From Clostridiaceae bacterium (GTDB lineage Bacteria > Bacillota > Clostridia > DSM-8532): a stretch of DNA of 64,000 nucleotides. The DNA is taken from positions 1 to 64,000 of the forward strand of contig DULR01000037.1 in NCBI GenBank assembly GCA_012840245.1, in the 5' to 3' direction. The position numbers and the translations under genes were made by a program. The notes under the pieces are model-generated. The model was not told the DNA's origin. It saw only the letters and a program-made list of their open reading frames with translations, and did no database searches. Each line of letters opens with the position of its first letter. The first letter of the stretch is position 1. Below, piece by piece: positions 6,393 to 43,251 of the stretch.

Positions 6393-6867
6393 TCAGATAA
6401 AATAATACAATAGCAACAGCATAACCAGGAAAATAACATTAATCAAAGTAAATACGCCTAAATAAGCTCCATTTTGCTTGCCTTCTGTTGTTCTGTAATA
6501 TTTGAATGATATAAGGCTTGCCATCGAGGCAATTAATGTTCCAAGACCACCCAGGTTTGTACCTACAATCAATTGCGATATATTGTCAGTAAATACTGAA
6601 TACGAAACAAAGCATTACAAGAACTATTGCCAGACTGCGTACATTACTAGTTTTTTCAAGCATCCATTTTCCAACCATAGAAAATATGCCAAGGCTTCTG
6701 AGCCCGGCCATGATGATCATCAAACCAAGCATGATAGTCAATGTATGAAAGTCAATATAACTAAAATAATGATTATCCGGCGGCACAAATGCAATAGACG
6801 CTAAAGCCAGCAATAAAGAAATGAATAAAACGACTTCTTTTTTTATGTATTTCAGTATTTTTCTCAT
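6393..6867 (-). pseudogene. SLC13/ArsB-NhaD-type anion permease, internal deletion
   Basis: Residues 1-89 (ATG 6867) form a normal permease N-terminus, with membrane segments and the HTLTIMLGLMIIMAGLRSLG region. Translation then stops after a frame change at about 6598. In another frame the family's C-terminus follows directly (QLIVGTNLGGLGTLIASMAS, then a final membrane helix, stop at 6393). Roughly half of a normal protein is missing, so this is a deletion derivative. The stop is followed by a small palindrome ATGTTC-G-GAACAT at 6375-6387. Confidence 0.75.
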
Positions 6868-9607: not shown

Positions 9608-10027
9608 CTACAATTTTCTTTTTGAATTTGTGATGTATGTTTCCTTAGAAAAAGCACCTTTGTAGACTTCTTCTACAAGAAATCCCATTAATTCTTTAAG
9701 CTTTTTCTTATTCGTAGGTATAATCAGCTTATTATTTTCAACAGCAATTTCTAAACTACAACTCTGTGCTAACTTCTTAATTCTAGCTGCTGTATTATTT
9801 TCAAGAATACCTGAGTCATTTATTACGGCAATTCTACGACGTATCCAGGTATCAGCCATAGATAGAAATTTTTCTTCGTCCTCAATATGTAATAAATTAG
9901 AATTGCTGAAATTATTAACTTCAACATCCGTTGCGGATCGATAATACTCACTCAGATCCAATATTTGGTTAGCATAAAAATATGATGAAAAGTAAAGACT
10001 ATAGTATTTCCATATTGATCCCTTCAT
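9608..10027 (-). CDS. DUF4868 (KwaB-like) C-terminal protein, probably 5'-truncated
   Basis: About 139 residues. The pattern RRRIAVINDSGILEN, IAVENNKLIIPTNKKKLKEL, then the ending KGAFSKETYITNSKRKL resembles the C-terminal half of DUF4868 proteins, the family of KwaB in the Kiwa anti-phage system. Family members are usually about 300 residues, so this reading frame is short. In-frame stops lie immediately upstream of the ATG and I could not find the N-terminal half. It follows the DUF262 protein gene by 75 bp on the same strand and no KwaA-like membrane protein is next to it. Family call is moderate; function as an intact defence protein is doubtful. Confidence 0.5.
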   Translation of the reverse strand: MKGSIWKYYSLYFSSYFYANQILDLSEYYRSATDVEVNNFSNSNLLHIEDEEKFLSMADTWIRRRIAVINDSGILENNTAARIKKLAQSCSLEIAVENNKLIIPTNKKKLKELMGFLVEEVYKGAFSKETYITNSKRKL

Positions 10028-10102
10028 CAAATGTTATTATTCTTGTTCATAATATCGTACATTGACAACATTTTGTTATTCAATTACTCTCCGTAACCTC
10101 TA

Positions 10103-11923
10103 TTAAACGCTTACATTCCATATCTGTTTGGCAAGGTTAAATAATAAATCCTGCCGGTTTTTGACTTCATCCTTATTCCAGACTGTAAAACACTGAAGAT
10201 TCTTTTCCGAAAAGCTATTCCAAGCCGTGTTAACGCCTATTTTTTCTATCTTGGCTATTGTTTGGGTCAGCTTGATATCGGATTTGCAGTATTCCTCTTT
10301 CTTTTTGTCAAACCAATCATTTTCCGTTATTTTATTAACCTTATTCAATGCCTGATTTATGCTTGATTCAACCAATGTAAGATTACCAAGCAAATGTAAG
10401 CAATACTCATAATCGTCTTCATTGCTAAATTGCTCAGGAATATTACCTTCATCAGGAGTCTGGGGAAAGATATGTTCAATTTGCAAACTCTTATAGTGAC
10501 TCATAGGATATACTGGTAAATTACTCATTAGCCTGATATAGTTTTCAATCCGGCCATAAAAATATTTAACTCTGTAAAGGGGTTTTATATCAAACTCCCT
10601 GATCGTATTGCATATCTGATTAAAACTGATTTGCTTGTTTTCAACTTCTATGCCGATTTTTGATTTTATGAAATCCTTTAAACCATCAAGAGTATCGATA
10701 TTTCTCAATTCCTTTGCCCAGCTTGAAAATCGGCTTTCAAATATTTTAGTCTGCTCGCGTGTCATTGTATAATAAAATACAAGAACCTCCAGGTTTTTGC
10801 ATAAGAGCTCAACAGCAGCTTTATTATTTATAAGCCTTGCATTTAATGCAAGCAAAAGTATAATATGCTGTCTGAAAGTACTTTTTCCGATATGCCCTAT
10901 ATATGTAAGAGATGGATTATCGGGATCTTCAGTACTTGCTATTGTTGCGTTGACAAAATCCCTGTAATATACTGAATTTTCCTTCAGCTCTTCAGCAAAT
11001 CTCAAAGGATTGTCTTGATAGTTAATAGCTTTCTTTCCTTCATCGGATATGATCCATTTATATATCTCATCTTCCCTTAACACACCGTTATAATATTTGG
11101 CCATTAAAAAATAACGTAGAAAGCGAAGAGGTTTATCTACTTCACCACATCTTTCAAGATTTAATATAATCTCTTTCCAAATAGACTTTATTTTTGCGAA
11201 ATCCTGTTGGTTTGATTCCTTAAATATCAAGTTTTTGAGCAGATCCATGGGAGTTAATCCGGAACCGCGCTGATTAATCGTTTCGAATATTTTTAAAGCG
11301 CTACCTATGTTTTCTGGGATAATGACAACCATTTCTACTTTAATAAGAAAATATATAATGAAATCCAGCAGGTGATTTTTATTGATGTTCGCAATATAAG
11401 AAGTTATCCTGTCATAGGCTTCCTTCATTTTATTGATTGAATTTGTTGTTTCACCATTATAATCAGTTTCTTCGATCAAGCAGTCCATGTAGTTTTTTGC
11501 TTCTTCATATTGAAGCTTAAGCCTGGGTCTGCTTCTTCCGGTTTCCAAATCATAACTGTAAAGAAGTTCATCAATCTTCTTTTTTATTTCTTCTAACCTT
11601 TTGGTACCAGGAAAGCTTGAATCTATTTTATTCTTTAAATATTCTCTGAAGGCACAAAGAGTCAAAACTATCGTTGTCAATCTTTGTTGACCATCAATAA
11701 CATCAAAATCTCCATCAGGTCTTTTCACAATTATTATTGAGCCAATAAAATAGCTCGACTGTTCATTCATTGGTTTTATTTCTGAAAATTCATTTTCTAT
11801 GTCCTCGAAAAACTGGGCGACATGTTCTTCGGATTTCCAAACATACTCTCTCTGATAGTCAGGAATAGTAAAATAGAATTTCAGCAATTCACCGATAGGT
11901 TTGACATCAGCTTTTATCTCCAT
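10103..11923 (-). CDS. DUF262-DUF1524 protein (GmrSD-like, type IV restriction-related)
   Basis: This 606-residue protein has PDYQREYVW (21-29), the ParB-like nucleotide motif DGQQR (77-81) and FETINQRGSGLTPMDLLKN (213-231), all of the N-terminal DUF262. The C-terminus has the HNH-type DUF1524 motif IEHIFPQ (482-488) followed by GNLTL (513-517) and the downstream asparagine. GmrSD and relatives use DUF262 for NTP-dependent sensing and DUF1524 for cleavage of modified phage DNA. The key residues are all present, so it should be functional. Its neighbours are an HNH endonuclease and a KwaB-like fragment, supporting a defence role. The ATG has a modest AAGGGGAAAG ribosome site. Confidence 0.88.
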   Translation of the reverse strand: MEIKADVKPIGELLKFYFTIPDYQREYVWKSEEHVAQFFEDIENEFSEIKPMNEQSSYFIGSIIIVKRPDGDFDVIDGQQRLTTIVLTLCAFREYLKNKIDSSFPGTKRLEEIKKKIDELLYSYDLETGRSRPRLKLQYEEAKNYMDCLIEETDYNGETTNSINKMKEAYDRITSYIANINKNHLLDFIIYFLIKVEMVVIIPENIGSALKIFETINQRGSGLTPMDLLKNLIFKESNQQDFAKIKSIWKEIILNLERCGEVDKPLRFLRYFLMAKYYNGVLREDEIYKWIISDEGKKAINYQDNPLRFAEELKENSVYYRDFVNATIASTEDPDNPSLTYIGHIGKSTFRQHIILLLALNARLINNKAAVELLCKNLEVLVFYYTMTREQTKIFESRFSSWAKELRNIDTLDGLKDFIKSKIGIEVENKQISFNQICNTIREFDIKPLYRVKYFYGRIENYIRLMSNLPVYPMSHYKSLQIEHIFPQTPDEGNIPEQFSNEDDYEYCLHLLGNLTLVESSINQALNKVNKITENDWFDKKKEEYCKSDIKLTQTIAKIEKIGVNTAWNSFSEKNLQCFTVWNKDEVKNRQDLLFNLAKQIWNVSV

Positions 11924-12003
11924 AGCTTTCCCCTTGCTTTTAAATATACTATGCTTTACTTCTTTTATGATATTGCATACTAAGATAAGATGAAGTTCCT
12001 CTT

Positions 12004-12624
12004 TTAAGTTTTACTTACTAACTTTTCGTTTATTTTATGGTTTCTAAATTTGATTGTATCTACTATAGAAATTAAAAATCTCTTATATTCTTCTATGCTT
12101 AACTTAATCAATTCATCTAAATTTAATCGTTTCTTGTTTTCAATTATGTCATCCATATATGCATCTTTATATACTTTTACAAGAGCTCTCGCCATTCTTT
12201 TGTGCCTTTCAAAGTAAATTTCTGGTATGTCAAAACAATTACTAAATACTCCTCTATCTACATTCCCACCAGGCCATATTGGAATCAAATTACCTATTGT
12301 GAGATAATTATTAACATATTCTTTTAATTCCTTTGTTGTATTCAGTTCTTCGAATTGTTCAAAATTCTCTCTTAAATATTTATTACTATATGCATTAGTG
12401 CCTATATCTGTCTTTATCATATATTTAGTACATGTAAAAATATCTGGATAAAAAGCTTTTAAGCCGATAACATAAATTCCTAGAAATGAGTAAAGGGTAT
12501 CAGTCTTTTCCCATCCTAACTTCTCAATCTCATTACTGAAAATTTTTTCTAAAGTGTCACCCTTTCCATCATATTTCCACGCAATAAAATCTTCTACTGT
12601 TTCTAATTGTTCTTTTAGTTTCAT
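12004..12624 (-). CDS. Hypothetical protein in defence-like cluster
   Basis: A 206-residue soluble protein with no signal peptide or membrane segment. I do not recognise the family with confidence. A central GNLIPIWPGGNVDRG followed by acidic/aromatic residues is reminiscent of uncharacterised proteins with a GN(F/L)xP...RG motif (for example DUF6994-like), but this is only an impression. The start ATG follows AAAGGATG. It lies 80 bp upstream of the DUF262-DUF1524 gene on the same strand, with low-GC codon use like its neighbours, and could be part of the same defence module. Confidence 0.6.
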   Translation of the reverse strand: MKLKEQLETVEDFIAWKYDGKGDTLEKIFSNEIEKLGWEKTDTLYSFLGIYVIGLKAFYPDIFTCTKYMIKTDIGTNAYSNKYLRENFEQFEELNTTKELKEYVNNYLTIGNLIPIWPGGNVDRGVFSNCFDIPEIYFERHKRMARALVKVYKDAYMDDIIENKKRLNLDELIKLSIEEYKRFLISIVDTIKFRNHKINEKLVSKT

Positions 12625-12961
12625 ATTTCGACATCCTTTTGCATAAAGTCATCTATATACCAATTATATATACGTATACCTACATATTTCAAGAAGATGG
12701 AACCAGTCGCCAAATTAGATGACTTATTATAAAGCAAATATTATTTTACTAACCTAAGGATAGCTTTTTTATTCCCGTCCAAACTCTCAATAATTGTTTA
12801 AATGTTTCATCTATTTTGTATGGACTATCAGGGTTTTTCTTTATGCATCCACAGCTTTTTTGACCACGTCTTAGGTTCCCAGTTAAAACGTATACAGCAT
12901 CCCCAAAAGAACATTTACACTCAGATACACTCCTAATTATTTTTAGAATTTATAAAATCAT
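12625..12961. other. Intergenic region containing a zinc-ribbon-like gene fragment
   Basis: No intact gene. Between about 12754 and 12950 the minus strand encodes a startless fragment, described separately. The remainder is AT-rich spacer with no clear promoter. Confidence 0.5.
12754..12950 (-). pseudogene. Fragment of an AP2/homing-endonuclease-type DNA-binding protein
   Basis: About 65 startless codons ending at a TAG (12756-12754). The paired cysteines ECKCSFGDA...GNLRRGQKSCGC match the zinc-binding element (C.C.CG....v....L..G...SCGC) found at the N-terminus of phage AP2-domain and HNH/GIY-type homing proteins. The DNA-binding domain that should follow is missing and stops occur upstream, so it is a relic. 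It suggests phage or intron-type traffic through this island. Confidence 0.55.
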
Positions 12962-13819
12962 TTATAAATGTCGGTTCATTTTAATTTTTTCTTCAAAGCC
13001 ATTGCTATATATAAACATTAATTTTTCTTTTTTAAATTCTGGCTCAGCTTTATGGATAATTCTATGATGGTTTGGACATACAATGATTTGATTATTTGCG
13101 TTGTTGTTTAGAGATTTTATAAAAGGAATTATATGATGGCTCTCAGCTATAGAAATGCCGTATCTATAGCTTATATTCGTTCCGCATATTTGGCATCGGT
13201 ATTCATATAATTCTTTCAAGCATTCTCCAATGGCACGATTAAGTCTTCTAACCTTTGTTAATAGTATCTTTTGCTCAATTGTAGCATTTTCATCGACTAT
13301 ATTATAATCTATTGAATACTCGAAATCTTGTTCCTGAATGTTTATTATTGATTGTCGAATCGCGTTGTAGTCATTGGCATTAAAGCATTCTAGTACATAT
13401 GTATCCGGATAATCAGTAATGTATATAGCAATAGACTCATTTATATCATCGGGTAAACTAATAGCCCGTCTACGTCCACTTTCTCTATCGATCTCTCGTT
13501 GTTGTTTCAGAAATTGATAACTTCTATTAAATATCATTCTTAATTCTACGGCTATATCACTGGTAGGAACATATCGTATTTGAACAATATCAGCTCTATC
13601 TCCGTATTTTTCTTGGTTAAATAACTGATTAACAAGCTTTGCTTTATAAGTTTTTCCATTAAGAATCAAATTTATCGGTTTGCTCTGCCCTCTATCCAAA
13701 TAATTACTTGCTTGCTTAATAAACTTTTTTTGGATAGTGACAGGTATACTTATCCCTTGATGCAGAACTGACCAGTCTATATTCTTTTTGTAAACATAGC
13801 CACCGTAAATATCAATCAT
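12962..13819 (-). CDS. HNH endonuclease with N-terminal recognition-like domain
   Basis: About 285 residues. The C-terminus is an HNH nuclease with paired cysteines (YRCQICG), AESHHIIPF and NQIIVCPNHHRIIHK, the complete zinc and catalytic set. The N-terminal ~100 residues (WSVLHQGISIPV, INLILNGKTYKAKLVNQ, ADIVQIRYV) look like an EcoRII-N/B3-type beta-barrel that binds DNA in restriction-related HNH proteins; this part is inference. I chose the ATG at 13819 because AGAGG lies 10-11 nt upstream and GYKSM before it looks untranslated. ATG 13861 and TTG 13876 are longer alternatives. It is the first gene of the defence-like run. Confidence 0.8.
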   Translation of the reverse strand: MIDIYGGYVYKKNIDWSVLHQGISIPVTIQKKFIKQASNYLDRGQSKPINLILNGKTYKAKLVNQLFNQEKYGDRADIVQIRYVPTSDIAVELRMIFNRSYQFLKQQREIDRESGRRRAISLPDDINESIAIYITDYPDTYVLECFNANDYNAIRQSIINIQEQDFEYSIDYNIVDENATIEQKILLTKVRRLNRAIGECLKELYEYRCQICGTNISYRYGISIAESHHIIPFIKSLNNNANNQIIVCPNHHRIIHKAEPEFKKEKLMFIYSNGFEEKIKMNRHL

Positions 13820-14318
13820 TGATTTATAACCTCTAATGTTTCCCTTTATTTCTTTATACATTAAGCACAATTTCAACAGTTTTCTACTTTACGTTCTTAA
13901 TTTTGGTCTTTCATTAATAACTCTCTTCGGAATACACAGGCAAAAATGCTTTATCTTTCGATTTTACTCCCCTCATAAATTACAAAAATTATAGTATATT
14001 ATAACACATTTTCATCTGTTGCTTCACCATGCATTCCATTAATAACCATCACTTAATTATTTATCCTTAATTCATCAAACTCGTGATTTGGATGTCCAAC
14101 ATCAATCAATTGATAATTTATTATTGAAACATAAATAGATCGTTCACTTTGACCAGGATTATATTAATTTGCGACTTCTAAATAGTTATGGACCTTCTTG
14201 TAAATTAACACTTGATTTTTTCAGGTATATGGTACAATTATGATTAGCGTTAATAAAGCAAATGGATAATTATCTATATATCCATACTTATTAAGTAGAT
14301 TTTTTGGAGGCTAATATC
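13820..14318. other. Long AT-rich intergenic region with a coding remnant and a promoter
   Basis: On the minus strand about 14053-14163 encodes a startless 36-codon tail (VGHPNHEFDELRINN at its end) of an unrecognised gene. On the plus strand TTGATT near 14213 and TACAAT near 14234 form a plausible promoter for the YbaK-like gene. Nothing else is supported. Confidence 0.45.
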
Positions 14319-43165: not shown

Positions 43166-43251
43166 TGGTGGGAGAAGGTGGATTTGAACCACCGAAGTCG
43201 TCAGACAACAGATTTACAGTCTGCCCCCTTTGGCCACTCGGGAATTCTCCC
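43166..43251 (-). tRNA. tRNA-Tyr (GTA anticodon)
   Basis: 86 nt with encoded CCA. Acceptor GGGAGAA pairs with TTCTCCC. Anticodon stem-loop is CAGA-CTGTAAA-TCTG with anticodon GTA. A long class II variable arm follows (TGTCTGACGACTTC region), and the T arm is GGTGG-TTCAAAT-CCACC. A class II tRNA with GTA is tRNA-Tyr. Confidence 0.97.

What the first reader, a model, noticed from the sequence alone, without database searches (positions are those of the whole stretch)
9608..13819. Defence-island-like run with an intact DUF262-DUF1524 protein, an HNH enzyme and an unknown partner
An HNH endonuclease, a 206-residue unknown, a GmrSD-like protein with complete DGQQR and IEHIFPQ motifs, and a KwaB-like C-terminus are in one orientation, low in GC and flanked by gene relics. 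The unknown protein between two nucleases is the most likely novel component.
Basis: partly seen in the sequence, partly recalled or inferred. Interest (0 to 1): 0.65.

Follow-up and report, generated by a model that had tools for sequence, protein, structure and literature searches.

The report
Patchwork defence island, not one system
A short AT-rich stretch of a Clostridia-like chromosome holds two intact DNA-cutting defence enzymes, the broken tail of a third defence gene and one gene of an undescribed mobile family; related genes elsewhere indicate separate acquisitions rather than one four-gene machine.

Summary
On the - strand of 9608-13819 (GC 31.5% against 42.9% for the rest of the window) lie an intact HNH enzyme, a 206-aa protein (P206), an intact DUF262-DUF1524 protein with DGQQR and IEHIFPQ, and the last 140 aa of KwaB. 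The reading as one unit with a novel partner is only partly supported. The HNH enzyme and P206 each have relatives elsewhere, and none of 18 P206 loci or 9 HNH loci holds any other of the four. KwaB lacks its first half and KwaA, so Kiwa is dead. The DUF262 protein looks like a stand-alone GmrSD/BrxU-type restriction enzyme (no DndC in the genome). P206 has no Pfam, PHROGs, PADLOC, PDB or viral-fold match and no housekeeping homologue. It is a sparse mobile family: between terminase and portal genes in Streptococcus prophages, on Macrococcus plasmids, beside CBASS and Druantia/NERD-helicase genes, and probably a far relative of DUF6994, which Pfam curators describe as HNH-like. Best verdict: a composite, partly decayed defence island; P206 is a plausible but unproven single-gene defence or phage accessory gene.

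The parts
12962..13819 (-). HNH endonuclease, 285 aa, intact; unclassified (possibly B3-like) N-terminal domain plus C-terminal McrA-like HNH with CxxC...CPNHH
13988..14015 (-). promoter-like site ATGAAA-16-TATAAT ahead of the HNH gene (consensus match only; such sites occur at chance frequency here)
12740..12930 (-). possible relic of a phage-type zinc-finger/HNH gene (..ECKCSFGDAVYVLTGNLRRGQKSCGC..), by eye only
   Evidence: no Pfam hit
12663..12692 (-). promoter-like site TTGAAA-18-TATAAT (11 of 12), 38 bases before the P206 start codon (consensus match only)
12004..12624 (-). P206: 206-aa protein of an undescribed mobile family; invariant D-L-SF-GIY, Y-GN-P-WPG-N-G, D132, Y180, R194
10103..11923 (-). 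DUF262-DUF1524 (GmrSD/BrxU-type) protein, 606 aa, intact; DGQQR at 11695-11681, IEHIFPQ at 10480-10460
9608..10030 (-). C-terminal 140 aa of KwaB (model positions 153-290 of 292); relic of a Kiwa system, no KwaA seen beside it

Best explanation
The stretch is a composite defence island put together by separate horizontal acquisitions upstream of a glnH-like transport operon. It holds (1) a solo HNH restriction enzyme, in which an N-terminal domain probably recognises DNA and a McrA-like HNH domain cuts it; (2) P206, a solo mobile gene of an undescribed family; (3) a stand-alone DUF262-DUF1524 enzyme, in which DUF262 binds and hydrolyses nucleotide at DGQQR and licenses DUF1524 to cut modified foreign DNA; (4) the dead tail of KwaB. 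Shown: gene content, motifs, truncation of KwaB, absence of shared partners, mobile and defence contexts of the relatives. Inferred: DNA cutting by HNH and DUF262-DUF1524 (from their families), and a defence or phage-competition role for P206 (from context and a weak link to DUF6994).
For: Domain and motif matches. Low GC. In the host family of 32 genomes only this genome has P206, and only it has a close match to the DUF262 protein; KwaB occurs in only this genome of 14 in the genus. P206 loci: Streptococcus prophages between TerL and portal, Macrococcus plasmids, beside a CBASS set SAVED/SMODS/ThiF/JAB in Enterococcus cecorum and beside DruE-like and NERD-helicase genes in Butyrivibrio. HNH loci: beside type I restriction genes, DndB-domain genes and at the head of a BREX operon, but also alone; two copies each in G244 and G297. 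No locus of P206 or HNH relatives carries another of the four. The same chromosomal spot in another species of the genus (G004) carries a PLD-SNF2 helicase matching PADLOC helicase models.
Against: P206 and the DUF262 gene are 80 bases apart, same strand, with no terminator found between, so they could share a transcript. Only 18 P206 loci (some near-identical) and 9 HNH loci were examined, and the genome-wide scan used strict peptide patterns, so rare co-occurrence could be missed. No close DUF262 relative was found, so its own partners were not surveyed. No activity was tested.
Confidence: 0.82

Rival explanations
1. P206 and the DUF262-DUF1524 enzyme form a two-gene restriction system, P206 acting as regulator or specificity partner.
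For: Same strand, 80-base gap, the best - strand promoter-like site lies just before P206. In G473 a DUF6994 gene, probably a far relative of P206, lies directly downstream of a DUF262-DUF1524 gene.
Against: None of 18 other P206 loci has a DUF262 relative; the G473 pair is one case, in the opposite order, with a stop in the DUF6994 frame. The known DUF262-DUF1524 enzymes BrxU, Eco94GmrSD and DndI cut DNA as single proteins in vitro (PMC10952713, PMC11662687).
Confidence: 0.12
2. P206 is a phage packaging or head gene that stayed behind from a prophage and does nothing in this genome.
For: In Streptococcus prophages it sits between terminase large subunit and portal.
Against: No other phage gene lies near it in the window; most relatives in genomes and plasmids stand outside phage gene sets; it has no PHROGs match, as a common head gene would.
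Confidence: 0.1
3. The whole stretch is decaying debris and none of the genes is active.
For: KwaB tail is a clear relic; spacer fragments; low GC.
Against: Three frames are full length, have plausible ribosome-binding sites (sequence) and keep all invariant motifs.
Confidence: 0.15

Closest known systems
GmrSD / BrxU type IV restriction enzymes (DUF262-DUF1524)
   Same: Single chain with both domains, DGQQR, His-Me finger motif IEHIFPQ...LGNLTL; PADLOC HEC-06 is the best hit, E=2.4e-79
   Different: The PADLOC mREase_IV model matches only weakly (E=2e-10); substrate unknown
DndI (PDB 9JFL), PT-sensing DUF262-DUF1524 nickase
   Same: Best PDB match, E=4e-13 over residues 1-253; Tyr23 aligns with DndI Tyr25, but this YQR motif is common in DUF262 (PMC11662687)
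   Different: No DndC match in the genome, so no Dnd phosphorothioation to sense
EcoKMcrA (PDB 6GHC), HNH restriction enzyme
   Same: C-terminal HNH domain, hmmsearch E=0.002
   Different: N-terminal domain unrelated by sequence; a low-confidence model resembles EcoRII-N (1NA6, 3HQF), probability 0.72-0.75, E 0.07-0.23
DUF6994 (PF22507), predicted HNH-like fold
   Same: Shared core Y-TIG--I--P-N---RG...D and C-terminal helix Y....I..RN; bridged by the G251 protein: DUF6994-G251 E=1e-9, P206-G251 E=6e-5, above 60 shuffled controls
   Different: No Pfam hit; direct profile match weak (E 0.003-0.009, probability 5-10%); P206 lacks one Asp of the DR-D motif; the P206 model finds no HNH fold
Kiwa (KwaA-KwaB)
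   Same: KwaB C-terminal half
   Different: N-terminal half of KwaB missing and no KwaA beside it

Membership tests
GmrSD/BrxU-type type IV restriction | DUF262 and DUF1524 on one chain | tested here: met
   GmrSD_N 7e-38, GmrSD_C 1e-16
GmrSD/BrxU-type type IV restriction | (I/V)DGQQR nucleotide motif and His-Me finger H-I-x-P motif | tested here: met
   DGQQR 77-81, IEHIFPQ 482-488
GmrSD/BrxU-type type IV restriction | cuts DNA with modified cytosine | not testable with these tools
   needs biochemistry
DndI/SspE phosphorothioate-sensing systems | dnd or ssp modification genes in the same genome | tested here: not met
   no DndC match in the genome; Ssp genes were not searched
DndI/SspE phosphorothioate-sensing systems | DUF262 tyrosine of the PT-binding patch | tested here: inconclusive
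   Y23 aligns with DndI Y25, but YQR is general in DUF262
Kiwa | full-length KwaB | tested here: not met
   only positions 153-290 of 292
Kiwa | KwaA next to KwaB | tested here: not met
   the neighbours are the DUF262 gene and a transport gene; no KwaA profile was run
McrA-like HNH restriction enzymes | C-terminal HNH with CxxC, HHI, N, CxxHH | tested here: met
McrA-like HNH restriction enzymes | N-terminal domain that binds modified DNA | tested here: inconclusive
   weak fold match to EcoRII-N, no sequence family
DUF6994 (PF22507) | match to the Pfam model over its cut-off | tested here: not met
DUF6994 (PF22507) | distant profile homology | tested here: inconclusive
   supported mainly through an intermediate protein

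The most novel reading that the evidence does not exclude
P206 founds a new family of single-gene, phage- and plasmid-borne defence or superinfection-exclusion proteins whose core derives from an HNH-type nuclease that has lost its usual catalytic His, related to DUF6994.
Probability: 0.28. Interest if true: 0.55.

Novelty: new member of a known kind. Interest (0 to 1): 0.33.

Why it matters
It removes a tempting four-gene 'system' from the list of candidates and replaces it with a smaller, testable one: an undescribed 200-aa family that recurs in prophages, plasmids and defence islands of Bacillota, with no known fold match and a possible tie to DUF6994. It also adds an HNH enzyme with an unclassified, perhaps B3-like, N-terminal domain that recurs at BREX, DndB-domain and type I restriction loci.

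Tried and rejected
Four-gene system: rejected, no shared partners. P206 as housekeeping: rejected, 1 of 391 genomes in the class has it and its relatives are mobile. P206 in Pfam, PHROGs, NCBIfam, PADLOC: no match. P206 fold search: nothing in PDB or BFVD despite a fair model, pLDDT 85. PT-sensing DndI role for the DUF262 protein: no DndC. HNH in phages or plasmids by tblastn: only one weak plasmid hit; one viral-contig relative was found later. The HNH model from two sequences was poor, pLDDT 50, so its EcoRII-N match is only a lead. Sequence search of the HNH N-terminal domain in PDB and Pfam: nothing usable. Rfam and tRNA near the island: none; the only tRNA is at 43166-43251.

Full report
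What is there. On the - strand of 9608-13819 lie four frames in one direction: HNH (13819-12962), P206 (12624-12004), DUF262-DUF1524 (11923-10103) and a KwaB tail (10030-9608). The stretch has 31.5% GC against 42.9% for the rest of the window and is among its lowest 4.2-kb stretches.

The DUF262 protein. It is full length, with GmrSD_N (7e-38), GmrSD_C (1e-16), DGQQR at 77-81 and IEHIFPQ at 482-488. Its best PADLOC models are HEC-06 (2.4e-79) and Orf5, and its best PDB match is DndI, 9JFL (E=4e-13 over residues 1-253). DndI and SspE sense phosphorothioated DNA (PMC11662687), but the host genome has no DndC match, so I read it as a stand-alone modification-dependent enzyme of the GmrSD/BrxU kind (PMC10952713). 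Of 32 genomes of the host family only this one has a close match.

The KwaB tail. It covers positions 153-290 of the 292-position model. Kiwa needs the membrane protein KwaA with KwaB (PMC12904381); the neighbours here are a transport gene and the DUF262 gene, so the system is dead. No other genome of the genus searched has KwaB.

The HNH enzyme. Homologues at 54-57% identity exist in distant genomes of the class, twice each in G244 and G297. Some lie in defence islands: ahead of a helicase and type I restriction genes (L038), behind an RT gene and a DndB-domain gene (L040), at the head of a BREX operon with BrxA and BrxC (L041), and near a Dam-like methylase and a DndB-domain protein (L044). 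Others stand alone among housekeeping genes (L039, L042, L043). Only its HNH domain matches a solved structure, EcoKMcrA (E=0.002). Its N-terminal domain has no usable Pfam or PDB sequence match. A poor two-sequence model (pLDDT 50) matched the EcoRII N-terminal domain at ranks 1 and 3 (probability 0.75 and 0.72, E 0.07 and 0.23). I had suspected a B3-like domain from the sequence before that search; it remains a lead.

P206. It has no Pfam, NCBIfam, PADLOC or PHROGs match. Relatives: four Streptococcus prophages in the phage collection, where the gene lies between terminase large subunit and portal in the records opened; three Macrococcus plasmids; ten genome contigs; four viral contigs. Fourteen aligned members share 22 invariant columns. 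Contexts include a CBASS set in Enterococcus cecorum with a serine recombinase beside it, a DruE-like and a NERD-helicase gene in Butyrivibrio, and positions downstream of an RNA-methyltransferase gene of the RumA kind in L009, L010 and L015. Other loci show no defence gene (L008, L011). In the host class 1 of 391 genomes has it. This is a sparse, mobile gene and not a housekeeping one.

What P206 may be. A fair AlphaFold2 model (pLDDT 85, mostly helical) has no match in PDB or BFVD. From the motif I suspected DUF6994 (PF22507). Its members share the core YTIG--I-FP-N---RG---D-DLT and a C-terminal Y...I..RN helix. Profile tests: P206 family against a G251 protein E=6e-5, score 38.5 against a best of 24.1 in 60 column shuffles; DUF6994 against the G251 protein E=1e-9; P206 against DUF6994 directly E=0.003-0.009, score 25-27 against a best shuffle of 21.7. 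The link is therefore likely but not secure. The Pfam authors describe DUF6994 as an HNH-like beta-beta-alpha fold, akin to type IV restriction enzymes, with the catalytic His replaced (PMC11701544). If P206 shares it, P206 may be a derived nuclease. That step is inference.

Do they belong together? A tblastn of the four proteins against every locus fetched found no locus outside this genome with two of them. The nearest thing is G473, where a DUF6994 gene lies behind a DUF262-DUF1524 gene: one case, so only a lead. P206 and the DUF262 gene here are 80 bases apart and may share a transcript, which keeps a two-gene reading alive at about 12%.

The site. In G004, a related species, the same glnH-like gene has a PLD-SNF2 helicase that matches several PADLOC helicase models directly upstream; in G007, G010 and G011 other genes fill the place. 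The spot therefore seems to take up varied genes, at least twice of a defence kind.

Verdict. A composite, partly decayed defence island of known kinds plus one undescribed mobile family. The finding as stated is fairly ordinary; P206 is the part worth a bench test.

Noticed in passing
window 6393-6867: Two short - strand frames (93 and 59 aa) read like the two ends of an ion permease (ArsB/CitM-like) with the middle gone, a likely pseudogene; by eye only.
   Followed up: no
L009, L010, L015: In three genomes the P206 relative lies directly downstream of a RumA-type RNA methyltransferase gene, which looks like an integration hotspot.
   Followed up: no
L040 4175-6600 and L044 1494-5804: HNH relatives lie near DndB-domain genes in two unrelated genomes, and at the head of a BREX operon in L041; the HNH family may be a regular accessory of defence islands.
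   Followed up: partly
L047 1-3351: Another species of the genus has a PLD-SNF2 helicase upstream of the same glnH-like gene, so the site may be a recurrent entry point for defence genes.
   Followed up: partly
L064 212-3189: A DUF6994 gene lies directly downstream of a complete DUF262-DUF1524 gene (PADLOC Orf5, E=4.8e-186).
   Followed up: partly
L055 1162-3115: A protein intermediate between DUF6994 and the P206 family follows a gene that looks like a WYL-type regulator (by eye).
   Followed up: no
L072 2030-4744: On a Pseudarthrobacter plasmid a DUF6994 gene neighbours caspase-like and TIR-domain genes, another defence-like setting.
   Followed up: no
L005 5418-13277: On Macrococcoides canis plasmid pKM0218 the P206 relative lies between type I restriction-modification gene pieces and the mecB region.
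   Followed up: no
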